From Bryobacteraceae bacterium (GTDB taxonomy: Bacteria > Acidobacteriota > Terriglobia > Bryobacterales > Bryobacteraceae), in NCBI GenBank assembly GCA_026129905.1, contig JAHCHE010000002.1, positions 1-64,000 of the forward strand: a stretch of 64,000 bases of DNA. Direction: 5' to 3'. Positions 26,659-35,287 of the stretch are shown one piece after another. A program made the position numbers and the translations under genes. Numbering within the stretch: the first letter of the stretch is position 1; every line of letters starts with the position of its first letter. The notes beneath the pieces are model-generated. The model had not been told where the DNA came from. It made no database searches and saw only the letters and a list, made by a program, of their open reading frames with translations.

Positions 26659-26734
26659 GAGCCGGTAGCTCAGTCGGTAGAGCATCTGCCTTTTAAGCAG
26701 AGGGTCCCGGGTTCGAGTCCCGGCCGGCTCACCA
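26659..26734 (+). tRNA. tRNA-Lys (TTT)
   Basis: 76 bases including an encoded CCA (26732-26734). The acceptor stem GAGCCGG pairs with CCGGCTC; the D arm has AGCTCAGTCGGTAGAGC; the anticodon stem TCTGC/GCAGA holds loop CTTTTAA with anticodon TTT; the T arm is CCGGG-TTCGAGT-CCCGG. Its 3' half is also the left attachment site of the integrated element that follows, and the gene is left intact. Confidence 0.95.
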
Positions 26735-26736
26735 TT
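26689..26736 (+). repeat. attL (tRNA-Lys 3' end)
   Basis: 48-bp core running from CCTTTTAAGCAG through the T arm and CCA to ATT. It matches 35240-35287 at 47 of 48 positions and lies in the functional tRNA copy. The shared stretch starts at the anticodon loop, a typical crossover region for P4-type integrases. Confidence 0.9.
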
Positions 26737-26771
26737 CAAAACAAAGGACTTCCACCAGCAAGAGAGAGGAT

Positions 26772-26795
26772 CCGGGACATACTGCGGGACATACT
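26772..26795 (+). repeat. Tandem CGGGACATACT repeats near attL
   Basis: CGGGACATACT occurs twice with a 12-base period (26773-26783 and 26785-26795), about 36 bases inside attL. The same word recurs in the same orientation near attR. Paired short repeats inside both ends are what arm-type binding sites of a tyrosine integrase look like; function is inferred. Confidence 0.55.
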
Positions 26796-26797
26796 GT

Positions 26798-26974
26798 TCA
26801 GCCCCGCTTCCGCGCCCGCTTGGCCGGTGGCGCGGCGGCCTTGACGCCCTGCCGTTCCATCGGGAGCCCGAGCGCCCGGCGCACGTAGTTCGATAGCGTC
26901 AGATCTTCCGCCAGCGCCTTGCTCCGTAGGGTCTTGTGGTCGGCGTCGCTCATGTTGACGATGAGCCTTTTCAT
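26798..26974 (-). CDS. Small ribbon-helix-helix protein
   Basis: 58 aa, beginning MKRLIVNMSDADHKTLRSK. A short beta strand (RLIVNM) followed by two helices (ADHKTLRSKALAEDL, then TLSNYVRRALGL) is the CopG/Arc fold; the tail is Lys/Arg/Ala-rich. It is the leftmost gene of the element and is transcribed divergently from the next small gene, so it is a good candidate for a repressor of the 78-base divergent region. Not long enough for typical gene callers. Confidence 0.75.
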   Translation of the reverse strand: MKRLIVNMSDADHKTLRSKALAEDLTLSNYVRRALGLPMERQGVKAAAPPAKRARKRG

Positions 26975-27052
26975 GCTTCGATTCTAACACATGTGTCCAT
27001 AGGTGCATATTTTCTCTTGACATGTCCCTATGTCCCTATGCATACTGGAGCC
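26975..27052. promoter_or_regulatory. Divergent promoter/operator region in the element
   Basis: A 78-base AT-richer gap between divergent genes. TTGACA at 27017-27022 and CATACT at 27041-27046 (18-base spacer) give a rightward promoter. It contains the palindrome ACACATGTGT and a tandem ATGTCCCT/ATGTCCCT array overlapping the promoter, with a related ATGTGTCCAT to the left. Such repeats suit a ribbon-helix-helix repressor. Confidence 0.5.
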
Positions 27053-27280
27053 ATGAGCAAACCCAAGGTAGTCAGAATACGAATCGCCGTCGCTCTCGAC
27101 GCGGAAGGCAACTGGAGCGCCGCCGGCTGGAGCGGCGCATCGGACCGCGATGCAATGGAAACCGCGGTGGACGCCGGCGCGGATCTCGCCGGAATGTATC
27201 GCCCGTGCTACGTAACGGTCGAAATTCCGTTCCCCAAGCCGACGGAGCTTGTCGGCCAGGTGGAAGAGGAAGAGGAATGA
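27053..27280 (+). CDS. Small acidic-tailed protein, unknown
   Basis: 75 aa from ATG 27053 with TGGAG just upstream. The N-terminal half (VVRIRIAVALDAEGNWSAAGW) predicts two beta strands; the C-terminus is a run of Glu (QVEEEEE). No family recognised. It is followed 72 bases later by another small gene on the same strand, and these two are the only rightward genes in the element. Confidence 0.65.
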   Translation: MSKPKVVRIRIAVALDAEGNWSAAGWSGASDRDAMETAVDAGADLAGMYRPCYVTVEIPFPKPTELVGQVEEEEE

Positions 27281-27352
27281 ACAACCCGGGAAGCGGGCGG
27301 GCCGTTCCAGCGACCCGCCCCGGTCCCGAATCCCAACATGGAGGTTAACCCG

Positions 27353-27613
27353 ATGAAGGAAACGAAACCGAGGTACAGTGTACCGCGAAAGCGCAAAGCG
27401 CCCCCAACGAAGTCGCGGCAGGCCATGACGACTCCCGCGCGCCGCCAGCCCGACATGGCTGATGCCGTCTTGGAAATCGTCGCCCTGCGCCGCCAGGCGG
27501 TGGAAAGCGCCGCCGCGGTGGTGGGTGAACTCGAACGGCTCGAAGCCGTTATCGCGACGTGGGGCCAACAGATCATGGAAACGCTGCGAAGGAGGTCGAA
27601 GAGTAAAGAGTAA
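27353..27613 (+). CDS. Small helical protein, unknown
   Basis: 86 aa from ATG 27353, chosen for GGAGGT at 27340-27345. The first 35 residues are basic and Pro/Arg-rich; residues ~38-80 form one long predicted helix (MADAVLEIVALRRQAVESA onward). A rho-independent terminator follows the stop by 17 bases. Unknown role; a basic tail plus helix could bind nucleic acid or a protein partner. Confidence 0.6.
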   Translation: MKETKPRYSVPRKRKAPPTKSRQAMTTPARRQPDMADAVLEIVALRRQAVESAAAVVGELERLEAVIATWGQQIMETLRRRSKSKE

Positions 27614-27630
27614 CCCGCCCCGCGCGATCA

Positions 27631-27658
27631 GGCCGGCCTTCGGGTCGGCCTTTTTTTT
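27631..27658 (+). terminator. Rho-independent terminator, rightward
   Basis: GGCCGGCC-TTCG-GGTCGGCC forms an 8-bp stem (one G-T pair) with a UUCG tetraloop, followed by eight Ts. It closes the two-gene rightward unit. Confidence 0.9.
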
Positions 27659-27661
27659 CGC

Positions 27662-27706
27662 AAAAAAACGGGGCGCCCGGACAAACGAGTTAAAGCCGGG
27701 CGCCCC
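27662..27706 (-). terminator. Rho-independent terminator, leftward
   Basis: GGGGCGCCCGG (27670-27680) and CCGGGCGCCCC (27696-27706) form an 11-bp perfect stem. Read on the minus strand it is followed by C/G then seven Ts (27662-27668). It would end leftward transcription of the capsid operon, about 130 bases past the capsid stop. Confidence 0.85.
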
Positions 27707-27718
27707 CAGCTAGGAGCA

Positions 27719-27825
27719 GGGCGGGTGAAAGCCTCGCGCGGAAGGACGGCCGCGCGGGGAAAAGCCCGCCCGCGGCAGGGGTAGGAGCAACCCCGCCGCT
27801 TCGGGCGCGCCAAGTAAACGCGCCC
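27719..27825. ncRNA. Candidate structured RNA downstream of the capsid gene
   Basis: Dense perfect helices with no open frame: GGGCGGG (27719-27725) pairs with CCCGCCC (27765-27771) and encloses CGCGCGG/CCGCGCG (27735-27741/27750-27756); GCGGC-A-GGGGT (27772-27782) pairs with ACCCC-GCCGC (27790-27799); GGGCGCG (27803-27809) pairs with CGCGCCC (27819-27825). The word TAGGAGCA appears twice (27711-27718 and 27782-27789), the second time in a loop. On the minus strand it would be the capsid mRNA 3' UTR ahead of the terminator; a separate RNA on either strand is possible. GC-rich DNA makes chance stems common, but four in ~107 bases is notable. Confidence 0.5.
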
Positions 27826-27833
27826 AAAGGTCG

Positions 27834-28928
27834 TTACGCCGAAATCGGCGAACTGGACAGCGAACCGCTGATGAAGCCCTCCGGCCTCAAGAGCGTGATG
27901 CAGAACCGTTCCTCGGCGAGAATCGTCGCCAAATTCGATGTGAAATTCTGGTTGTGTTCGTAGCTGATCGCAACGGTCGTCGCCATGCGCTGGCGAATCG
28001 CGGCCATCGACGCATCGCCGACGAGGAACGTCGTCTCGCTGATCTCGGGCGATTCAACTAGCTCGATGCCTTGCAAAGGCGAGTTTGTGAGGTATTGGCC
28101 CTCGCCGTCCTTTTGCGTGCGAATGTGAAACGCATCGCGCGGATGCACAACCGCGAACGACGGCGCGAATCCCGACTCCCGCAGTTGTGTGACCGCGGCC
28201 GCAAGCACGTCAACTTTGTGCCAGCCGGAGACGGCCGGAAGAATCGTGGTGTCGAATGCCGTAGCGGTCGGAATCAAGCCGGTGAGGTGAACGCCCGTCG
28301 AATCGCCGGCCAGGATCTCTTCCTCGGCGCGCTTTTCGAGCGCCCATCGCAGCGTACTCTCCAGAAAAGGACCCATCGCCGAAATATCGTCGAGCGCCTG
28401 CCGCGAAATGTGAACGAAACTGGCAATGGTCTGAATCGGGATCGAGGTCGCGGTGAACGTGAACGCGGATTCGTGCTTCCCCTGCCCTTCTACTTGTGGC
28501 GAAGCAACCGCGCTTTCCGACGTGCTCCGCGGAACGAAAATGCTCGCGGCCGTCGTCGGGATCGTCCTGAAGAGTGAGCGCAGGCGGCCGTAGCGCCACT
28601 TGCCCTCGCCGTAGAGGCCGGTCGGCTGCGCGGGCGTCGTCAATCCGGTGCTCACAATGGTCGCCTTGCTCTCGCCCAGCAGAGACGGGATCTCGAAAGA
28701 AACTCTGCCGTGGCGCGTCAGGCCCTCTTTGTTTTGCGCGAAGGCGTCCGCGAACGCCTTGAAGCTGTCGCCGCCGCGGTCGGCAGGCGGGATGCGGCCC
28801 AGCTCCGCGAGCGCCTTGGATTGCTCGCGCAGTTCGGATTCCAATTCGGCAATTCGCGCGTCGCGATTGGCGGCGAACGATTTGAGGATGGTGCTCAATT
28901 CTTTGAATTGACCTTCAATGTCGAACAT
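27834..28928 (-). CDS. HK97-family major capsid protein
   Basis: 364 aa. Residues ~1-60 are a coiled-coil delta-like domain (EGQFKELSTILKSFAANRDAR, ESELREQSKALAELG). The coat domain follows: SLFRTIPTTAASIFVPRS, an E-loop/beta region FTFTATSIPIQTIASFVHISRQALDD, SFAVVHPRDAFHIRTQKDGEG and the terminal EERFCITLLRPEGF. This is the standard order for HK97 capsids, which form the shell after the delta domain acts as scaffold. No maturation protease gene is nearby, so the delta domain may be kept or removed by a helper's protease. GGAG precedes the start. It is the last gene of the leftward operon. Confidence 0.9.
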   Translation of the reverse strand: MFDIEGQFKELSTILKSFAANRDARIAELESELREQSKALAELGRIPPADRGGDSFKAFADAFAQNKEGLTRHGRVSFEIPSLLGESKATIVSTGLTTPAQPTGLYGEGKWRYGRLRSLFRTIPTTAASIFVPRSTSESAVASPQVEGQGKHESAFTFTATSIPIQTIASFVHISRQALDDISAMGPFLESTLRWALEKRAEEEILAGDSTGVHLTGLIPTATAFDTTILPAVSGWHKVDVLAAAVTQLRESGFAPSFAVVHPRDAFHIRTQKDGEGQYLTNSPLQGIELVESPEISETTFLVGDASMAAIRQRMATTVAISYEHNQNFTSNLATILAEERFCITLLRPEGFISGSLSSSPISA

Positions 28929-28931
28929 AAA

Positions 28932-29129
28932 TTACTCCAAATGTGAATGAATTTCTTCGCGCGTGAGTGCGGCTGCGGCTCGGCGTGCGGTCAGTAGCGG
29001 CTCGGTGGACCTGTCGTCGGCTCGCCGCCCCGCCAGAGTGCGTCCCGCGGCTCTGGCGGCCGCAGGCGAGTGACTGCGGCGGTCCATGAGTGCTGTAAAC
29101 ATTCTACGCCCGTCGCGTTTGAAACACAA
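28932..29129 (-). CDS. Possible small protein between two element genes
   Basis: 65 aa in the 200-base gap before the capsid gene. Its ATG abuts the TGA of the preceding gene, and its stop lies three bases before the capsid ATG, so the reading frame exactly fills the gap. The end (LLTARRAAAALTREEIHSHLE) reads as helical; the rest is Arg/Ala-rich, as random GC-rich frames often are. GAGGTGA sits immediately before the ATG, rather close. Unknown; real coding is uncertain. Confidence 0.4.
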   Translation of the reverse strand: MCFKRDGRRMFTALMDRRSHSPAAARAAGRTLAGRRADDRSTEPLLTARRAAAALTREEIHSHLE

Positions 29130-29441
29130 TCACCTCGCGGTGTCAGTCTCGCCGCCGGCCTCCGGTTCGCTCGCCCGCCGGTACAGCCGCTCAAGCTGCT
29201 CAATTTCCGCCCGCGCTCGGGCGGTGAGCGGTTCGAGGTCCGGCAGCGCAGCCCGGGCGTCACCCGTGATCTCGGCGATCACATCGAACGCGAGACGCAC
29301 CAGGCGAAACAGGCCCTCGGTCTGCGCCTGAAGGCCGGCCAGCGCCTTCGCCGCTTGCTGGAGCGCCTCCTGCTGGCCCCGGAGCATGCCAACGATGCTC
29401 TCGTCCAGTTCCCGCCGTTTGGCGGTGTAAGTCTCGCTCAT
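29130..29441 (-). CDS. Small coiled-coil protein, unknown
   Basis: 103 aa, nearly all predicted helix with heptad-like leucines (MLRGQQEALQQAAKALAGLQ, then ARAEIEQLERLYRRASE). AAGGAG lies upstream of ATG 29441. Its place between small terminase and capsid genes suggests a scaffold, size-determination or packaging accessory, as satellites often encode, but there is no sequence evidence for a particular role. Confidence 0.7.
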   Translation of the reverse strand: MSETYTAKRRELDESIVGMLRGQQEALQQAAKALAGLQAQTEGLFRLVRLAFDVIAEITGDARAALPDLEPLTARARAEIEQLERLYRRASEPEAGGETDTAR

Positions 29442-29456
29442 TGGGTCTCCTTTCTC

Positions 29457-29987
29457 TCACATCGAAAAAACGTTCGTGGGTCCGCACGTCTCGGCGGCCG
29501 GCGGTTCGTCGCCCTCCAATTCCGTCGACAGGAACACCCGCTCCTTCTCCGTCATCGGGTACCCGTTGGTTTTCCACCAGCGCCCCCGATGCACGGCCAG
29601 GCGGCGGTAGTACCACGGGACGGGCGTGGGCGGGAGTCGGGGCGGGTCAAACGGGACTCGGGGCGGATTGACCCGCAACATGGCGAGGAACTCAGTCTCC
29701 GGCCGCTTGAATATGTCCCGAATCGCGTACTCATGGGACCCTGGGTGCTCGTTTAGCGGGTCGGTGAACACGGCCCACAGTTCCCAGAATTTCCGGGGGT
29801 ACATGAATTGAAACGCGGCCCGCTCCTCAGGCTCCGGGAACGTCTCGAAAAACAGCACGTCCTCAAGGCAGATCCACGCCGGTCCGATTATCGGCCCGCC
29901 GGACGCCTGAACCTTTCGCCTCACGGCCTCCCGCGCCGATAGAGCGCAATTGCCGTGAAATTTCCGCTTGCCGCGCTTGTCAGACAT
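29457..29987 (-). CDS. Unknown protein of the packaging operon
   Basis: 176 aa, rich in aromatic residues (FFETFPEPEERAAFQFMY, KFWELWAVF, PWYYRRLAVHRGRWWK). No signal peptide, membrane segment or motif I recognise. Its ATG overlaps the small terminase stop by eight bases, so it is translationally coupled to terS. It could be a terminase or capsid-interacting factor; that is inferred from place only. Confidence 0.7.
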   Translation of the reverse strand: MSDKRGKRKFHGNCALSAREAVRRKVQASGGPIIGPAWICLEDVLFFETFPEPEERAAFQFMYPRKFWELWAVFTDPLNEHPGSHEYAIRDIFKRPETEFLAMLRVNPPRVPFDPPRLPPTPVPWYYRRLAVHRGRWWKTNGYPMTEKERVFLSTELEGDEPPAAETCGPTNVFSM

Positions 29988-30282
29988 CCTGAAGCTCCGC
30001 TACATCCAAGTCGAGCGCCTTGATCGACGCCAGCAAGCCGGCCCGCGCCTCTTTTTCCACTTGTGTCGCCGGGTGCGGTTTCGGCTGCCCGAAGCGGTCC
30101 GTTAACACGATGCCTTCCGCCGCGAGAATCCCTTGCGCCTGCCGCAGCCGGTCGAGCGCTTGGCAGGCCGTCAGCAGCGTGAGCAACCCGGCCGCGTCGT
30201 GAATATTCCAGTCGTGCTTCACCCGGTCGTAGAATTTCCGGGCCTCTAGGCTGAGTTTCTTGAACTGGTCGCTTCTACTCAT
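29980..30282 (-). CDS. terS: P27-family small terminase subunit
   Basis: 100 aa. The P27 pattern is visible: a tyrosine-rich helix (SLEARKFYDRVKHDW), an all-helical middle (AAGLLTLLTACQALDRLRQAQ), ILAAEGIVLTDRFGQPKPHPA, and a final helix KALDLDVAEL. TerS recognises the pac or cos site and recruits the large subunit to load DNA. No large subunit is in the element; encoding TerS alone is how phage satellites divert a helper's packaging motor to their own DNA. Overlaps both neighbours by eight bases. Confidence 0.8.
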   Translation of the reverse strand: MSRSDQFKKLSLEARKFYDRVKHDWNIHDAAGLLTLLTACQALDRLRQAQGILAAEGIVLTDRFGQPKPHPATQVEKEARAGLLASIKALDLDVAELQDV

Positions 30283-30718
30283 CGGAATTTTCCAAATGCG
30301 AAAGTGTACCCTCGCGCGAAAAAAATGGCGACGCCGGTTCCAACCCGTTGATTCCAGAGATCTTATCCGCCCTACCCGTCTCGGTCAGACCGAAGGCGCG
30401 CCGGTATTCGGACCGCGCGATCTTCAACTCCATGTCCGCGGCGAGTCTCTCGCTCGCCGGAACGAAGCAGCGTGTACCTCGCCAGGCTACGCGGGCTACG
30501 CGGGCCTCGGCCTCTGCCAATCGCCGTGCGGCGGCCGCGATGCGCTCGCTCGTCTCGTCAACGAACTGTCCGCGCCGAACGTCGCCAGGATCCGGGCCTT
30601 CGTCGCCGTCGAGTAGATCCAGGTCCTCGTCCCGGGGCCGGTCGGCGCCGATCAACCTCGGCCCGACCTTGCAGCCAGGCGGCCGTCCGCGCCGTCGCGG
30701 TGTGGCGGCCGGCGTCAC
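30275..30718 (-). CDS. Unknown basic protein with an AT-hook-like N-terminus
   Basis: 147 aa. It opens with TPRRRGRPPGCK, whose RGRP core matches the AT-hook minor-groove motif. A long helix follows (SERIAAAARRLAEAEARVARV). Terminal segment is Ser/Glu-rich. It overlaps terS by eight bases and the upstream gene by four. DNA binding near packaging or replication is plausible but not shown. Confidence 0.65.
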   Translation of the reverse strand: MTPAATPRRRGRPPGCKVGPRLIGADRPRDEDLDLLDGDEGPDPGDVRRGQFVDETSERIAAAARRLAEAEARVARVAWRGTRCFVPASERLAADMELKIARSEYRRAFGLTETGRADKISGINGLEPASPFFSREGTLSHLENSDE

Positions 30719-30960
30719 GATGGCCTCCTGGTGGCCTCAGGCGGCCCAGGAGCGCTCGCGGGCGGGTCCGGGTGGGTTACCCTTGCCGGCGCGCTGATCG
30801 TCGCTGCCGCCGCGCAGCGGGGGCAGCAATGGCCGTGGTAGATCGCCGTGCAGTCTTCCGCGACGTGCGCGTCCGAATGGATGAACGTATGGCAGCGGTA
30901 ACACAGGCCGGCCACGCCCCGCACGGGAAGGCAGCGCTCGCGGGTCATCGGCCCACCCAT
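30715..30960 (-). CDS. Small Cys/His zinc-binding-like protein
   Basis: 81 aa. Residues ~18-50 hold a dense metal-ligand set: CYRCH, then HSDAH, a Cys, and HGHCCPRC. Two CxxC pairs with intervening His suggest one or two structural zinc sites. The last 30 residues are Pro/Ala-rich. It is the first gene of the packaging operon and lies just left of the iteron cluster, so transcription of the operon should begin in or near that cluster. No family recognised. Confidence 0.65.
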   Translation of the reverse strand: MGGPMTRERCLPVRGVAGLCYRCHTFIHSDAHVAEDCTAIYHGHCCPRCAAAATISAPARVTHPDPPASAPGPPEATRRPS

Positions 30961-30996
30961 TTGTCAGTAGTGTTCATGTCCAAAACCGTTCCTTTC

Positions 30997-31121
30997 CTGA
31001 CGGGTTTTGGGTTTCCTGACGGGTTCTGACGGGTTTTCTTCAAAAGTCCCTATACGCGCGCGGTGAAAAAAGTTTTGAGGAAAACCCGTCATAACCCGTC
31101 AGCCGTCAGCCAACCCGTCAG
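30997..31121. other. Iteron cluster, candidate replication origin of the element
   Basis: CTGACGGGTT occurs three times at 30997-31006, 31016-31025 and 31026-31035; its inverse complement AACCCGTCA(G/T) occurs three times at 31083-31091, 31093-31102 and 31112-31121, with a partial CCGTCAG at 31103-31109. The two arrays face each other around a 47-base core that contains an A-rich run (GAAAAAAGTTTTGAGGAAAA). The right array overlaps the last bases of the helicase gene. Iterons flanking an AT-rich stretch beside a primase-helicase is the layout of SaPI and P4-type origins. Confidence 0.75.
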
Positions 31122-32556
31122 CCCGAAGCCCAATCCCGCAGTAAACCTTGCCGTGCTCGGTGTGGCTCCGGTCGAAGCCCTTGTCCGCCATCCGGCGGCC
31201 GAACGCCGTTTCGGTGATCGAGTGCTCTCCGCTCTCGTCGGCCCACTTGCGGTATGCCTGATACAGTGATCGCGCCTTGATCTGGGCGAAGTCGCCTACG
31301 ATGCAACACTCTGCGATGAAGCGCCCGAACTGATCCATTTCCTCGCGGTAATCACGAACGGCCTCGTCTACTTCCGGCGGCCGTCCGAGGCCCTCGGCGT
31401 ACCAGCGGACCGCGCCGGCCGCGGCCCAGGCGAGTATGCCCTCCGCTTCCGCCAGCAACTTGCTCTTGAGGTCGCGGTCTATCTCATCATCGGCAATCGT
31501 CACCGTGAAGGGGATCAGGTGAAGGCGATTCCAAATCGCGTTATCCGTTCCCTTGACGATTGGCCGGTGATTGCAGTCCATCCATAGCTTGTGGCTCTCG
31601 GAAAACTCGATAGGGTTCTCATACTTGCGAACCGCTTTGATGCGGCCCATGCCCTGAGTGATTCGCTTGAGCTTGCCTTCCGCGAGTCTTTGGCCTTCCT
31701 CTGTCTCGGAAGTCATCACAAACCGCGCGCCACGGAGGTCCGCGAGGTCGGCCTGAGTATTGTTGCTCTCTTGCCGAACCATGAGAGTGTCGATTTGGAG
31801 CAATACCGAATACTCGGGAGCCAGGTCGCGGAAAAGAGACAGCAGTGTCGTCTTACCGTTGTTCCCGCCGCCGTAGCACAAGAAAACGGCTTTTTCGGAC
31901 GTGTTTCCGGTGAGCGAATAACCGAAGGCCTTTTGCAAATAGCGCATCAGGCTATCAGCACGGGAAAGTGCTTGCTCGCTCGCGCCGCCATTAACGCCCA
32001 TGATGCGCGCCAGGAATTGCAGAAACATCGGACACTGAGCGCCAGCATGATAGTCGTAATCGACCAACTTTGTAATGAAGTGCTGCCGATGGTGGCGCGA
32101 CAACTCACCAGTCCGAAGGTCGAGAGTCCCGTTTGCGACATTGAGCAAGTGGGGATGCGCGTCGAGCGATTCAGGAGCGATAGGCAACTCGCAATGTGCG
32201 GATGACAACATGGTGCTGATGCGCCGGTCGTCGAGAGTTTGCTTTGCAAACTTCTCAATTTCCTTGTTGCCTATTCGCATGGACTGACTGACAAACTCAA
32301 GCGCGGTTTCCTTTGCGAGCTTTTCGGCGCGCCCGCCGTCGTCAACGGCCCAGCGCCGCCCGTCCCACACCAGCCACTTGCGGAAGGCGTAGCAGTACCG
32401 GAGGTCCGCGCCATGCAGCGCGATCAACCGCTCCGCGTTCCCGTGATCGTTGAGCAACTGGGACAGGAGATTCGGCTGCTTGACCTTCACCTGTCGGAGC
32501 AACTGCGAGACGGTTTCCGGCGAGTCGGCCTCCCGGAAGGACTCAAGCGGCTGCAT
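31099..32556 (-). CDS. P4-type D5_N/SF3 helicase
   Basis: 485 aa. Residues ~90-230 correspond to the D5_N domain (HLLNVANGTLDLRTGEL), and the SF3 helicase follows with Walker A YGGGNNGKTTL, an SETEEGQRLAEGKLKRITQG motif B region, and the motif C segment HKLWMDCNHRPIV. A winged-helix-like C-terminal region ends the protein. Members unwind and initiate replication of phages, plasmids and satellites. The TOPRIM primase domain usual in P4 alpha is absent; the zinc finger is on the overlapping upstream gene. An iteron cluster lies over its 3' end. Confidence 0.9.
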   Translation of the reverse strand: MQPLESFREADSPETVSQLLRQVKVKQPNLLSQLLNDHGNAERLIALHGADLRYCYAFRKWLVWDGRRWAVDDGGRAEKLAKETALEFVSQSMRIGNKEIEKFAKQTLDDRRISTMLSSAHCELPIAPESLDAHPHLLNVANGTLDLRTGELSRHHRQHFITKLVDYDYHAGAQCPMFLQFLARIMGVNGGASEQALSRADSLMRYLQKAFGYSLTGNTSEKAVFLCYGGGNNGKTTLLSLFRDLAPEYSVLLQIDTLMVRQESNNTQADLADLRGARFVMTSETEEGQRLAEGKLKRITQGMGRIKAVRKYENPIEFSESHKLWMDCNHRPIVKGTDNAIWNRLHLIPFTVTIADDEIDRDLKSKLLAEAEGILAWAAAGAVRWYAEGLGRPPEVDEAVRDYREEMDQFGRFIAECCIVGDFAQIKARSLYQAYRKWADESGEHSITETAFGRRMADKGFDRSHTEHGKVYCGIGLRADGLADG

Positions 32557-33091
32557 CCGCCCCCCAGGTCGAAATCAGCGCCTCCAACTGGGCGCGCCGC
32601 CGCCGCTCCGCTCTCCGGCCGGCCTTCACCATGCCCGCCGTGAAGGTCGGCTCCCGGTAGCGCCAGTCGCGGTACTCATCCAGCAGCCCGAATCCCGTCC
32701 GCGCGATGCGCCGCAAGCGGGTGTACGTCGCCCGCTCCGGGGCGTTCCAGGCCAGCCGCTCGAGCGATTCTTCCGCCAGCGCCCCCAGCGCTATGCCGAA
32801 GCACTTCGCCTCTCGCTCATCCAGCCGCCGCGCCGCCTGATCTTCCGCCCACTGGCGCCGCTCTGCCGGTGAGAAGTCGCGCCGCTCCGGTTCGGGCCAT
32901 AGGCCCCGCTGGCGCAACGCCTCAATAACCGCAGCCTGCGCGCAGCCGCCGAAACAGTGGACCAACAGGCGGCCGTCTCGCTCCGCGAGGGTGAGCGAGG
33001 GTGAGCGGTCGTCATGCGCCGGGCAGCGCGCGGACCATCCGGCGCCGCTCTTGCGGCCGTTCAACGCGCGGGCGATCTCGCGTGCGGTCAC
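32543..33091 (-). CDS. CHC2 zinc-finger primase-like protein
   Basis: 182 aa. The N-terminal ~60 residues are a CHC2-type zinc finger: CPAHDDRSPSLTL then VHCFGGCAQAAVIEALR. No TOPRIM motif follows; the remaining ~110 residues are Arg-rich helices. The gene overlaps the helicase by 14 bases, so both halves of a primase-helicase are made as separate coupled chains. Priming activity may need a host or helper primase, or an unrecognised catalytic part. Confidence 0.8.
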   Translation of the reverse strand: MTAREIARALNGRKSGAGWSARCPAHDDRSPSLTLAERDGRLLVHCFGGCAQAAVIEALRQRGLWPEPERRDFSPAERRQWAEDQAARRLDEREAKCFGIALGALAEESLERLAWNAPERATYTRLRRIARTGFGLLDEYRDWRYREPTFTAGMVKAGRRAERRRRAQLEALISTWGADAAA

Positions 33092-33313
33092 TTACGCCTC
33101 CAGCCAGTACCTGACGGCGGCCCCGAAGTACCGATACCGCGGATATCCCGCCCCTGCCTCAGTCCGGCCGGCCTTCCTGTCTTTCCAGCGCCAGTTGGCC
33201 AGAGTAAATGGCGATAGTCCGGTATGCACGGAGTAAGTCGCCGCCGTCACCCAGCGCCCGGTGACTTGCGGCGGCGCATCTGCCATTGCCCTGAGTTGTG
33301 CTTGATTCATCAC
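33092..33313 (-). CDS. AlpA/excisionase-like helix-turn-helix protein
   Basis: 73 aa. WVTAATYSVHTGLSPFTLANWRWKDRKAG and the YPRYRYFGAAVRYWLEA end follow the winged-helix excisionase/AlpA pattern (helix-turn-helix, then a strand pair). Either Met 33313 or 33310 may start. It is directly upstream of the CHC2 gene (stop and start adjacent) and downstream of a GTTACC repeat cluster that would contain its operator. Confidence 0.75.
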   Translation of the reverse strand: MMNQAQLRAMADAPPQVTGRWVTAATYSVHTGLSPFTLANWRWKDRKAGRTEAGAGYPRYRYFGAAVRYWLEA

Positions 33314-33329
33314 ACACTCAGAGTAGAGT

Positions 33330-33438
33330 GTTACCTTGTTACCTTCAATGGTTGTTACCTGAGGTAACGAGGTAAGGCGTTGAAAACGCGGATCTTCGGA
33401 TGATGAAAAAACAGTCTAAAAGGTAACAGGCGTTACCT
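33330..33438. repeat. GTTACC/GGTAAC repeat cluster
   Basis: Tandem GTTACCTT at 33330-33337 and 33338-33345; palindrome GTTACC-TGA-GGTAAC at 33354-33368; AGGTAAG shortly after; palindrome AGGTAAC-AGGC-GTTACCT at 33421-33438. A T/A-rich run (TGATGAAAAAACAGTCTAAA) lies between. The cluster fills the gap ahead of the AlpA-like replication operon. Operator for a regulator or a second replication site are both possible. Confidence 0.65.
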
Positions 33439-33465
33439 CAAGGTCGCAAGGTACTCGACGGGCGT

Positions 33466-33939
33466 TCACCTCACCGGCTGCCGCGGCGGCGAAACGCTCG
33501 ATATCCACTTCGAGACGCTGGGACGGTTCTTTCGATACGCCGCCGACCAGGACTCGGCGGCGGCCCATGCCGCATTTTTCGGCCGTGGCCGATTGCCCAG
33601 ACGGGCGCAGATCTCCCGGTGAGTCAGTTTCGCTGCCCGCCACTCTCGGATCTCGCGTTTGATCTTCTCTATCTCCCGGTCGCGGCCTTGTTGCTTACCT
33701 CCCGACGAAAACGCGCCCCTCACCTTCGCCCGTTCCAGCAATCGCAAAGGCATATAGTCGGGATCGCCGCGCTCTACCAAGCGGTGTTGCAATGCCCACT
33801 CCTCTATCGTGATCCGAGCCTCCCTTTCGGTGGCGTCGCGCGGTATGCCGAGATGCTTTCGTATCTCGGCGAGCGCCCGCAACTCGGCGAAGTGATCCTG
33901 CATGTTTTCCCAGATCTTCCTCGGCGATTGTTCATCCAT
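33466..33939 (-). CDS. Unknown HTH-like protein coupled to the integrase
   Basis: 157 aa from ATG 33939, which overlaps the integrase stop by eight bases; the longer frame to 33981 is within the integrase coding end and less likely. Helical and charged. Residues ~105-130 (EIREWRAAKLTHREICARLGN) resemble a recognition helix pair. It follows the integrase in one operon, the place of an excision or immunity regulator, and ends beside the GTTACC cluster, which it may bind. No family recognised. Confidence 0.65.
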   Translation of the reverse strand: MDEQSPRKIWENMQDHFAELRALAEIRKHLGIPRDATEREARITIEEWALQHRLVERGDPDYMPLRLLERAKVRGAFSSGGKQQGRDREIEKIKREIREWRAAKLTHREICARLGNRPRPKNAAWAAAESWSAAYRKNRPSVSKWISSVSPPRQPVR

Positions 33940-35092
33940 GACTGTTGCTTTCTCCCAGGATCTTCGCGTACCGCGCCGCAACCGCGTTAATGACCGGCCT
34001 CAGACTCTCCACCACAAGCGGCGCCGTGATATACCCTCGGCTCACGTCGCCGCCAAGGCTGTGACCCATAAGCAACCGCGCCTGGTCGGGAGTCGCCCCG
34101 AGTTCCGCAAGCGTTGTTCGGAAGGTGTGTCTCAGGTGGTGAGCGGACAGAACGCCCCGCTTATCATCGCGAACGTTCACCAGATGAGACTCGGGATTGA
34201 CCGGCGAGGGGAAGCACCATTCACTCGGCGGGACTTCGCCGCTATCCCGGTAGCCCGTCAGCAGCTCGGCCAGCTTGTCGGCCATCGGGACGATGTACGG
34301 CCGGTCGCCTTTGGTCACTCTGAAGGTGATGGTCCGCTTCTCGAAGTCCACGTCAGCCCACTTCAGCGCTTCGATACTGCCCCGGCGAGCGCCGGTGAAC
34401 AGACAGGCGAGCCACCACGTTCTTTTGATCGGGTTCAACGGTTTTACGCCCGCCCACCATTTATGAAGGTCGGCCGGCGCAAGCGCCCAGTCGCGGGCCT
34501 TCATCTCGGGCAGGTCCACTGCTACGGTCGGACTTTCCGGGAGGTCCGCGTCCACCTTCCGCGCGTAGCGGTACACAGCGGAGAACATCCGCATGGTTTG
34601 AGACGCGCTCGCCTTGCCGTGCTTGCGAGCGATTGCATGGTAGAGCGAGCGCAGGCCGGAACGGTCTCTTCCGATGTCCTCAAGTGCGCGTGGCGTCCAG
34701 TCGGCGAGGTAGCGTTCGACGTTGTACTTGTAGATCTCGCGGGTTCGCTCGCCGAGCTTGTCCCGCTCGAGGAACTCCTCAAAGGCGAGCTGGAACGTCT
34801 TACGCCCGCCGGCCGGAACAGGCTTCATCCGAGTCCAGCGTTTCGCCGCCTCCGCGCGTGCCGCTTTAAGAGTGATCTCGCCCAGGATCCCGCGGGCGAG
34901 ACGGCCACGGACGCGCCGTTGCACGAAAAACGACTTGCTCCGTGCTCTCGCGCGGACGTACAGCCCCGGTACGCCGCCCACGCGCCACGTCCCAGAATTG
35001 TACGGCAGGTCGTCTACGGCCTTCTGATTGGACGCGACGATTTTCTCTTGCGGCCCGGCCTTGCGCCGGATCGGTACGACCTTCTGCTTCAT
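33932..35092 (-). CDS. int: Tyrosine-type site-specific integrase
   Basis: 386 aa from ATG 35092, preceded by GGAGG; the frame to 35134 adds 14 residues without support. N-terminal arm-binding region ~1-90, core-binding helices ~95-190 (FEEFLERDKLGERTREIYKYNV), catalytic domain after ~215 with Arg in TGARRGSIEALKW, Lys in VTKGDRPY, HHLRHTF, GHSLGGDVSRGYI supplying His and the nucleophile Tyr. It resembles P4/CP4-type integrases that recombine at tRNA 3' ends, fitting the 48-bp att repeats. It reads away from attR, with arm-type repeats just upstream. Confidence 0.95.
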   Translation of the reverse strand: MKQKVVPIRRKAGPQEKIVASNQKAVDDLPYNSGTWRVGGVPGLYVRARARSKSFFVQRRVRGRLARGILGEITLKAARAEAAKRWTRMKPVPAGGRKTFQLAFEEFLERDKLGERTREIYKYNVERYLADWTPRALEDIGRDRSGLRSLYHAIARKHGKASASQTMRMFSAVYRYARKVDADLPESPTVAVDLPEMKARDWALAPADLHKWWAGVKPLNPIKRTWWLACLFTGARRGSIEALKWADVDFEKRTITFRVTKGDRPYIVPMADKLAELLTGYRDSGEVPPSEWCFPSPVNPESHLVNVRDDKRGVLSAHHLRHTFRTTLAELGATPDQARLLMGHSLGGDVSRGYITAPLVVESLRPVINAVAARYAKILGESNSHG

Positions 35093-35105
35093 GGCAGTTG
35101 AACCT

Positions 35106-35128
35106 CCGGGACATCTCCGGGACATACT
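35106..35128 (+). repeat. Tandem CCGGGACAT repeats near attR
   Basis: CCGGGACAT at 35106-35114 and CCGGGACATACT at 35117-35128, an 11-base period, just upstream of the integrase start codon. They match the pair near attL. They could serve as integrase arm sites and also let the integrase repress its own promoter. Confidence 0.55.
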
Positions 35129-35239
35129 TTTCACCCCGAAACGTCCGGTTATCCCGGATTATAGCAGAACAGCCAAGATGATGATACTGCGGGATGAACG
35201 ACTTACGGCGGGTGATATCGGGTGAACCGATGGACGCTA

Positions 35240-35287
35240 CCTTTTAAGCAGAGGGTCCCGGGCTCGAGTCCCGGCCGGCTCACCATT
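35240..35287 (+). repeat. attR (tRNA-Lys 3' end copy)
   Basis: Second copy of the 48-bp attachment core, 8551 bases from attL and 147 bases beyond the integrase start. The only difference is C for T at the first T-loop base (CTCGAGT instead of TTCGAGT). No 5' half of a tRNA precedes it, so it is not a tRNA gene. Confidence 0.9.

What the first reader, a model, noticed from the sequence alone, without database searches (positions are those of the whole stretch)
26659..35287. Capsid- and TerS-encoding minimal phage satellite in tRNA-Lys
Seen: 48-bp direct repeats of a tRNA 3' end, an intact integrase, a P4-type helicase, a P27-type small terminase and an HK97 capsid gene, but no portal, protease, large terminase, tail or lysis gene in 8.6 kb. 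Established: PICIs and P4 use integrase, primase-helicase and TerS or capsid-size factors to exploit helper phages; capsid-forming PICIs carry more head genes than here. Inference: this is a reduced satellite type, in an acidobacterial-looking host where satellites are poorly known. If the capsid is its own, with a helper's portal and motor, it would be a minimal capsid-hijacking strategy. A decayed prophage is the main alternative, but every frame appears intact and genes are overlapping and coupled.
Basis: partly seen in the sequence, partly recalled or inferred. Interest (0 to 1): 0.88.

Follow-up and report, generated by a model that had tools for sequence, protein, structure and literature searches.

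The report
Capsid-carrying phage satellite in Acidobacteria
An 8.6-kb island in a soil bacterium's tRNA gene looks like a small parasite of bacterial viruses: it carries its own replication genes, a DNA-packaging selector and one virus-shell protein but seems to need another virus for the rest, and relatives with the same reduced plan occur in at least two bacterial phyla.

Summary
An 8.6-kb island sits in tRNA-Lys(TTT) between 51-bp direct repeats. It carries an integrase, a CHC2 zinc-ribbon protein, a P4-family helicase, a P27-type TerS (weak match) and an intact HK97-fold capsid gene. No portal, protease, TerL, tail or lysis gene was found.

Decay of a prophage is unlikely. I found 27 repeat-bounded elements of 8.3-11.9 kb (14 Acidobacteriota, 12 Alphaproteobacteria, 1 of unknown host) with integrase and capsid but no detected portal or TerL: 9 carry capsid alone, 18 capsid plus prohead protease. 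Capsids in satellite pairs show purifying selection (dN/dS 0.03-0.36, 6 of 7 pairs evaluable). 21 of 25 keep the HK97 cross-link triad.

The novelty claim is only partly right. Satellites with a capsid gene but no portal or TerL are known: SaPIbov5 Ccm, PmCI172, many Gram-negative PICIs. I read this as a PICI-like satellite whose TerS redirects a helper's motor and whose capsid homologue enters, and probably shrinks, the helper's head, as Ccm does. A shell made by the satellite alone remains possible. The helper is unknown. New here are the phylum, the HK97/P27 combination, the recurrence, and the portal-less protease-plus-capsid subtype.

The parts
26659..26734 (+). tRNA-Lys(TTT), integration target, intact copy
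   Evidence: ARAGORN
26686..26736 (+). attachment-site repeat, left copy (tRNA 3' end)
   Evidence: 51-bp direct repeat, 96% identical, spacing 8551
35237..35287 (+). attachment-site repeat, right copy
33932..35092 (-). tyrosine integrase (an upstream GTG would extend it to 35134)
   Evidence: PF00589 1.1e-14, phrog_1 5e-44
33466..33939 (-). ORF of unknown function overlapping the integrase; possible regulator (inference)
   Evidence: open frame; no Pfam, PHROG, NCBIfam or PADLOC match
33330..33438 (.). six AGGTAAC repeats, probable operator region (inference)
   Evidence: 6 of the 7 copies in 64 kb; 1.5 expected in the whole window
33092..33313 (-). 73-aa ORF in the excisionase/AlpA position; function inferred from position and look only
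   Evidence: no family match. The ORF in that place in L018 is HTH_17; homology of the two was not tested
32543..33091 (-). CHC2 zinc-ribbon primase piece
   Evidence: PF01807 2.4e-6
31099..32556 (-). P4/D5-family replicative helicase
   Evidence: TIGR01613 4.8e-78, PF08706 1.7e-32
30998..31120 (.). probable replication origin: three direct and three inverted TGACGGGTT iterons around an AT-richer core, at and just beyond the 3' end of the helicase gene
   Evidence: all 6 copies in the window lie here, 0.5 expected in 64 kb; sequence
30715..30960 (-). small ORF, unknown; coding status uncertain
   Evidence: not chosen by the in-house gene caller
30275..30718 (-). ORF, unknown
   Evidence: no family match
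29980..30282 (-). small terminase subunit, P27 family
   Evidence: PF05119 3.3e-5 at cut-off, TIGR01558 5.7e-7 below cut-off, homologue in L018 4.7e-23
29457..29987 (-). ORF, unknown
   Evidence: no family match
29130..29441 (-). 103-aa ORF directly upstream of the capsid; candidate scaffold or size factor (inference)
   Evidence: similar ORF in L019 (7.5e-6); a small ORF stands in this place in most acidobacterial elements
27834..28928 (-). HK97-fold major capsid protein, 364 aa, short N-terminal delta region, cross-link triad K151/N332/E339
   Evidence: PF05065 9.3e-30, TIGR01554 2.4e-26, model closest to HK97 prohead I, triad
27053..27613 (+). two small ORFs on the opposite strand, unknown cargo
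26798..26974 (-). 58-aa ribbon-helix-helix-like ORF (weak)
   Evidence: NikA-like 0.001, below cut-off

Best explanation
A PICI-like phage satellite. Integrase and att sites put it into tRNA-Lys (shown by anatomy). A helper phage induces it, it excises, and it replicates from the iteron origin with its P4-type helicase (inferred from anatomy). Its P27 TerS binds a satellite pac site and recruits the helper's TerL (inferred). Its HK97-type capsid protein enters the helper's head assembly, most likely mixing with the helper's coat protein and enforcing a smaller shell, as Ccm of SaPIbov5 does (inferred). Portal, maturation protease, TerL, tail and lysis come from the helper (inferred from their absence).
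For: Intact repeat-bounded island with its own replication module and probable origin. L018, in the same family but in tRNA-Arg, carries the same set: helicase, a homologue of the zinc-ribbon protein, TerS and a 42%-identical capsid, again with no portal, TerL or protease found. 27 repeat-bounded elements of 8314-11853 bp show the same plan. Capsid dN/dS is 0.03-0.36 in 6 evaluable of 7 satellite pairs. The cross-link triad is kept in 21 of 25 satellite capsids, the window's included. The N-terminal delta region is short: 117 residues to an anchor against a phage median of 149, as Ccm's is against phi12 CP (PMC5052747, passages). CP and Ccm co-assemble at 24% identity (PMC8569155, passages), less than the 32-36% between the window capsid and four prophage capsids of the same family. 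The host genome has no match to PF04860 portal or PF03354 TerL.
Against: No helper, excision or particle was shown. The window capsid's own selection could not be measured (nearest relative 42% identical). In E. coli PICI EcCICFT073 neither the capsid nor the head-decoration deletion restored normal lambda plaquing (PMC6092414, passages), and PICI capsid genes are reported as not required for transfer (PMC10111431, passages). The delta-region difference is not corrected for relatedness, start codons are predicted, and the ranges overlap (satellites 110-205, phages mostly 117-242). 18 of 27 relatives carry a protease with the capsid, which fits a self-made shell better. TerS was detected in only 10 of 27.
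Confidence: 0.5

Rival explanations
1. Brick-swap satellite: the satellite's coat protein builds the whole shell alone, of a size fitted to about 9-12 kb, and only portal, motor and tail come from the helper (and the protease, in capsid-only elements such as this one).
For: 18 of 27 elements carry protease and capsid together. The cross-link triad is kept in 21 of 25. Element size is narrow. 14 satellite capsids (13 alphaproteobacterial, one from IMG/VR) form one clade apart from phage capsids.
Against: No portal means the shell must accept a foreign portal. SaPIbov5 Ccm, the only lone satellite capsid homologue whose structure I read about, cannot make complete capsids alone (PMC5052747, PMC8569155, passages). 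The window element lacks the protease.
Confidence: 0.25
2. Passenger capsid: the element is packaged as concatemers in full-size helper heads, and the capsid gene is a captured, dispensable late gene.
For: Capsid genes in PICIs were reported as not required for transfer, and an E. coli model PICI is packaged as phage-length concatemers (PMC10111431, passages). PICMIs lack capsid-remodelling genes (PMC10803314, start of abstract in the search listing).
Against: Purifying selection on satellite capsids, kept cross-link chemistry and repeated presence across two phyla.
Confidence: 0.12
3. Decayed prophage that lost portal, TerL and tail.
For: Capsid and TerS are phage genes. Some satellite capsids are close to phage capsids (L019, 67-68%). 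L259 is a broken remnant, so decay does occur.
Against: Same reduced set in repeat-bounded elements in many tRNA genes, open frames, narrow size, purifying selection.
Confidence: 0.03
4. Interference or decoy gene: the capsid only poisons helper head assembly to protect the host, with no role in the satellite's own spread.
For: Ccm expressed from a plasmid lowered phi12 titres 1000- to 10000-fold (PMC5052747, passages). Relatives carry defence-like cargo.
Against: The co-occurring TerS, integrase and origin point to transfer. 18 relatives carry the protease as well.
Confidence: 0.07

Closest known systems
Gram-negative PICIs (EcCICFT073, PmCI172; PMC6092414)
   Same: Integrase, small regulator slot, primase-replicase with iterons 3' of it, one-directional gene order from the integrase, capsid gene and in some a TerS; PmCI172 carries a capsid homologue and makes small heads
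   Different: Host phylum; HK97/PF05065 capsid with P27 TerS (not compared directly with PICI capsids); no AlpA family match; helper and induction unknown; three small left-end ORFs, two of them on the other strand
SaPIbov5 Ccm (cos SaPIs; PMC8569155, PMC5052747)
   Same: Single HK97-fold capsid homologue in a satellite, N-terminal delta region shorter than that of most phage proteins, no protease found in the element
   Different: SaPIbov5 is cos-packaged; the window has a TerS; 18 relatives of the window also carry a protease. Ccm itself did not turn up in the sequence search of solved structures
Capsid-forming PICI (cfPICI; described in PMC10690885, passages; EcCI2 structure 9gyi)
   Same: Satellite-encoded HK97-fold capsid; the EcCI2 capsid matches weakly in sequence (5.4e-5) and in fold (Z 16.4)
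   Different: cfPICIs carry capsid, protease, portal, connectors, both terminase subunits and HNH; in the window only capsid and TerS were found
P4-like satellites (features recalled)
   Same: P4-family helicase, tRNA integration, about 10 kb
   Different: No sid, psu or delta family was hit; the zinc-ribbon piece and helicase are separate genes; has a capsid and TerS instead
Streptomyces satellites MulchRoom and MiniFlayer (PMC10690885, passages)
   Same: Satellites with their own capsid gene
   Different: They carry both terminase subunits, portal and scaffold, and no obvious replicase

Membership tests
Gram-negative PICI | Site-specific integration by its own integrase | tested here: met
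   51-bp repeat at tRNA-Lys and tyrosine integrase; activity not shown
Gram-negative PICI | Att site never used by prophages of the species | not tested
   tRNA-Lys sites of related genomes were not surveyed
Gram-negative PICI | One-directional transcription from the integrase | tested here: met
   Integrase to capsid all on the minus strand; two small plus-strand ORFs at the left end. In relative L018 the integrase is divergent
Gram-negative PICI | AlpA or MerR regulator | tested here: inconclusive
   73-aa ORF in the right place without a family match; the ORF in that place in L018 is HTH_17
Gram-negative PICI | Replication initiator with two iteron sets flanking an AT-rich core at its 3' end | tested here: met
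   P4-family helicase and 3+3 TGACGGGTT at 30998-31120
Gram-negative PICI | PICI-exclusive genes related to those of known PICIs | not tested
   No known PICI sequence was compared directly
Gram-negative PICI | Phage-dependent induction and packaging | not testable with these tools
   -
cfPICI | Full head and packaging set (capsid, protease, portal, connectors, TerL, TerS) | tested here: not met
   Only capsid and TerS found
Ccm-type capsid redirector | HK97-fold capsid homologue without portal or protease in a satellite | tested here: met
Ccm-type capsid redirector | Delta region shorter than the helper coat protein's | tested here: inconclusive
   117 versus phage median 149 residues, but the helper is unknown
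Ccm-type capsid redirector | Forms pentamers in small heads | not testable with these tools
   -
P4-like satellite | sid/psu/delta module | tested here: inconclusive
   No such family hit among the island ORFs scanned; several ORFs remain unknown
Encapsulin | Encapsulin as closest fold, and encapsulin family score over cut-off | tested here: not met
   HK97-type phage capsids Z 19.1-24.9, encapsulins Z 16.7 or less; Linocin_M18 24.1 bits, just under its cut-off of 24.3, against 104.4 for Phage_capsid; encap_f3 28.8 bits, cut-off 180

The most novel reading that the evidence does not exclude
A widespread, repeatedly arisen class of 8-12-kb satellites in Acidobacteriota and Alphaproteobacteria replaces only the brick of a virus head (capsid, often with its maturation protease) and borrows portal, motor and tail. 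The satellite coat protein alone builds a small cross-linked shell on a foreign portal. This would be a third way of capsid piracy, between Ccm-type mixing and full cfPICI head sets.
Probability: 0.28. Interest if true: 0.72.

Novelty: new variant of a known kind. Interest (0 to 1): 0.52.

Why it matters
It extends capsid-bearing phage satellites to Acidobacteriota; I saw none described there in the listings of two literature searches (20 of 23 papers listed, 10 of 134 listed). It also shows a recurrent reduced head module, capsid with or without protease but without detected portal or TerL, in two phyla. Named isolates such as Edaphobacter aggregans DSM 19364, Methylobacterium sp. WSM2598 and Aureimonas flava make the mixed-shell versus own-shell question testable. 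The gradient of capsid alone, capsid plus protease, and full cfPICI head set offers a way to study how a satellite gains or loses head genes.

Tried and rejected
Decayed prophage: rejected on recurrence, repeat-bounded size and purifying selection. Encapsulin: rejected on fold ranking and family scores, though Linocin_M18 came within 0.2 bits of its cut-off. Resident HK97-type helper prophage: none found; the host genome has 0 matches to PF04860 and PF03354 and only this one PF05065 capsid at E 0.001. Two other P4-type helicases lie elsewhere in it, in regions I read as phage-like by eye; L062 has a GpA-type TerL. I did not test whether such a phage could help. Defence genes on the window island: of 10 ORFs only the zinc ribbon matched, over about 50 and 37 positions of two long DRT models (1.1e-5 and 0.0058); read as the shared zinc finger.

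Close relatives by back-translated search with the single capsid: none in genome contigs, one weak in viral contigs; the alignment query worked. An antisense reading of the 25-nt capsid repeat: no counterpart in the 21 other elements examined (longest match 14), so not pursued. Excised or packaged circular forms in IMG/VR: no exact terminal direct repeats of 20-300 bp in the 80 viral loci; many are cut stretches of longer contigs, so this is weak. Charybdis elements: unrelated, judged from the abstract.

Limits. The in-house HMMs were grown from loci fetched here and detect HK97-type portal and TerL only. Of the 48 loci with neither, I gave 34; the other 14 were repeat fetches of the same place, the window, or short contigs. 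Loci without a usable flanking repeat were then dropped: 13 of 34 and 7 of 12 (of these seven, L255 has the full module, L258 a portal, L259 is a broken remnant; L248, L251, L252, L253 are portal-less with integrase). L025 and L026 lie near contig ends, and L025 has a minor-tail-like ORF below cut-off; L025, L086, L117 and L123, which have no repeat, still count as satellites in the tree, delta-region and triad counts. Pfam and PHROG scans of 62 large element proteins (220 aa or more, integrase, capsid and protease left out) showed no portal or TerL among the first 25 of 42 and the first 25 of 104 matched families; the rest were not shown. One, in L214, is a tape-measure protein. For the 24-genome searches contigs carry numbers, so 'no hit inside an element' rests on positions and contig lengths plus the absence of in-house HMM hits in the fetched loci. 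The tree is a quick build with long branches. Two lines of my notebook are superseded: entry 5 puts the tape-measure protein in L250 (it is in L214; L250 has an MmeI-type enzyme) and says 10 of 12 loci (9 have integrase).
Full report
CHECK. tRNA-Lys(TTT) lies at 26659-26734. A 51-bp repeat of its 3' end recurs 8551 bases away at 96% identity. Between the copies lie integrase, an unknown ORF, a 73-aa ORF, a CHC2 zinc ribbon, a P4-family helicase, small ORFs, TerS, two more ORFs and an HK97 capsid, all on the minus strand, then two small plus-strand ORFs and one small minus-strand ORF at the left end. TerS is the weakest call: exactly at Pfam's cut-off, below NCBIfam's, but with a clear homologue in L018. 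No portal, protease, TerL, tail or lysis gene was found (14 ORFs with Pfam each with PHROGs and NCBIfam).

ORIGIN AND OPERATOR. Six TGACGGGTT copies, three direct and three inverted, sit at 30998-31120 at the end of the helicase gene and nowhere else in 64 kb, with 0.5 expected. Two iteron sets around an AT-rich core 3' of the replication gene is what PMC6092414 (section 6, read) gives for Gram-negative PICIs. Six of the window's seven AGGTAAC copies lie at 33330-33438, between the regulator-like ORFs.

HOST AND HELPER. The genome (8.57 Mb, 98% complete, 4.4% contamination) is in one family with Bryobacteraceae bacterium ACI1 and strain KBS 96, by kinship labels and matching contig lengths. 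It has no match to PF04860 portal or PF03354 TerL and no second PF05065 capsid. So no HK97-type helper is resident by these models. A region with a GpA-type TerL is present.

RELATIVES IN THE FAMILY. The capsid matched 14 of 237 genomes of the family, the window's own included. Two of these (G003, G004) were matches of 43-59 residues in long frames and were left out. Of the 13 loci fetched besides the window, 5 have portal and TerL (L020-L023, L027) and 8 have neither (L018, L019, L024-L026, L028-L030), of which L025 and L026 lie near contig ends. L018 repeats the window's set in tRNA-Arg within 8619 bases: HTH_17 protein, zinc-ribbon homologue, P4 helicase, TerS, two small ORFs and a 42%-identical capsid, but with a divergent integrase. 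L030 sits in tRNA-Lys(TTT) like the window, with a 51%-identical helicase but a very different capsid. The helicase itself matched 49 of 237 genomes, many in longer fused frames.

RELATIVES ELSEWHERE. With in-house HMMs, 178 loci (repeat fetches of one place included) carry the capsid: 118 with portal and TerL, 12 with one of them, 48 with neither, several of these cut by contig ends. A class-level search of 399 genomes, drawn evenly from a larger group, gave 16 with matches at E 1e-15, 7 of them from the family already searched. Of 12 new loci fetched, 9 have capsid, protease and integrase without portal or TerL (one, L252, repeats L086), 1 has the full module, 1 a portal and 1 is a broken remnant.

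THE 27 ELEMENTS. 21 of 34 loci, 5 of 12 and the window have flanking repeats, at a called tRNA in all but L024 (whose repeat only looks like a tRNA end). The shortest repeats are 20-30 bp (L111, L101, L254, L249, L100, L092, L081, L019). Sizes run from 8314 to 11853 bp, median 9974. The named hosts are Edaphobacter, KBS 96, ACI1, Methylobacterium, Haematobacter, Alteripontixanthobacter, Polymorphobacter, Rhizobium, Rhodoplanes, Sphingomonas, Aureimonas, Falsochrobactrum, Agrobacterium and a fen Bryobacterales MAG; that the proteobacterial ones are Alphaproteobacteria is recalled. Nine have the capsid alone, 18 capsid and prohead protease (17, L138; the integrase of L107 is also). TerS was detected in 10 of 27. 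In the acidobacterial elements that have it, the protease follows the capsid; in the proteobacterial ones it precedes it. A small ORF often lies just before the head genes; in 8 elements these form one sequence family. Of 24 genomes searched, 14 hold a PF04860 portal somewhere and 9 a PF03354 TerL; none of the hits appears to lie inside an element (limits under Tried and rejected). Cargo includes an MmeI-type restriction enzyme (L250), a Fic (L101) and a Schlafen AlbA domain (L257), a reverse-transcriptase match below cut-off (L100), and in L214 a tape-measure protein.

ARE THE CAPSIDS FUNCTIONAL? Six of seven satellite pairs could be evaluated: capsid dN/dS 0.030, 0.087, 0.122, 0.184, 0.213 and 0.358; the seventh was saturated, some dS values are high, one element (L100) is in two pairs, and three (L117, L126, L123) have no flanking repeat. 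Aureimonas flava holds two elements with 86%-identical capsids but integrases only 27% identical. The window's own capsid could not be tested this way. The HK97 cross-link residues K169, N356 and E363 (roles recalled) align with K151, N332 and E339. All three are kept in 21 of 25 satellite capsids and all three differ in L028, L029, L030 and L066; phage capsids keep K in 103, N in 106 and E in 105 of 109. The AlphaFold2 model (mean pLDDT 69.9, 73 residues under 50) matches HK97 prohead I best (Z 24.9, 2.3 A, 256 residues); encapsulins come at 16.7 or less.

HISTORY. In a quick tree of 136 capsids (26 satellite, 110 phage) the satellite label needs 8 changes, at least 7 forced by supported branches, against 24.2 when shuffled (0 of 500 as low). 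Fourteen satellite capsids (13 alphaproteobacterial, one from IMG/VR) form one clade (SH-aLRT 95). The window groups with L018, L028 and L029 on long branches. So capsid genes were probably taken up several times, and at least one satellite lineage then diversified. L019 looks like a more recent case, 67% identical to the capsid of a prophage in its own genome.

MECHANISM. Shown: island anatomy, gene set, recurrence, selection on relatives. Inferred: excision, replication, TerS steering of a helper TerL, and a role of the capsid in head assembly. The best-known precedent is Ccm of SaPIbov5, a capsid homologue with a short delta region that takes the pentamers of a T=4 head while the helper protein takes the hexamers, at 24% identity between them (PMC8569155, abstract and passages; PMC5052747, passages). 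The window capsid has a short N-terminal region too: 117 residues to an anchor, phage median 149, satellite median 137 (25 against 109 rows, p 0.002, not corrected for relatedness). The protease-plus-capsid subtype fits a shell built by the satellite alone. Sequence does not decide between the two. By my own scaling estimate, about 9-12 kb would suit a T=3-like head if the helper packs 40 kb in T=7.

KNOWN OR NEW. PMC10111431 (passages) states that 21 of 29 reference Gram-negative PICIs carry a major capsid gene and that these were not required for transfer; PMC6092414 (section 6 and passages) describes PmCI172 with a capsid homologue and small heads, without proving that the homologue makes them. 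The kind is therefore known. cfPICIs as described in PMC10690885 (passages) carry the full head set, which fails here. I saw no description of such elements in Acidobacteriota, nor of the portal-less protease-plus-capsid subtype, in the listings (titles and starts of abstracts) of searches; three of these lists were cut (20 of 23, 20 of 53, 10 of 134). The library lacks most subscription papers, including the cfPICI and SatelliteFinder papers that I know only from recall, so this is not proof of absence.

Noticed in passing
28277-28301 and 33455-33479: A perfect 25-nt inverted repeat: a piece of a highly conserved capsid motif recurs in reverse complement at the end of the ORF beside the integrase, so a minus-strand transcript of that region would be antisense to capsid mRNA. 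None of 21 other elements has more than 14 nt of such a match.
   Followed up: partly
L028, L029, L030, L066 capsids: All three HK97 cross-link residues differ in four satellite capsids and are kept together in the other 21.
   Followed up: partly
L111 and L138 (Aureimonas flava): One genome holds two satellites in different tRNA genes with 86%-identical capsids and very different integrases.
   Followed up: no
L114 genome (G248): TerL and portal hits with near-equal scores occur at three places on one contig; one may lie 12-14 kb from the satellite if it is the same contig. Candidate helpers.
   Followed up: no
L214:6272-8281: A tape-measure protein (TMP_3, 1.2e-51) inside a portal-less protease-plus-capsid element: a satellite that might also set tail length.
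   Followed up: no
L250:5718-8624 and L100:11341-12960: MmeI-type restriction enzyme, and a reverse-transcriptase-like ORF (below cut-off), carried in portal-less satellites.
   Followed up: no
L062 and L063 (same genome as the window): Two further regions with P4-type helicases in the host genome; L062 carries a GpA-type TerL.
   Followed up: partly
L019:2810, 5402, 15554: Three copies of a repeat of the tRNA-Glu end suggest two islands in tandem at one tRNA gene.
   Followed up: no
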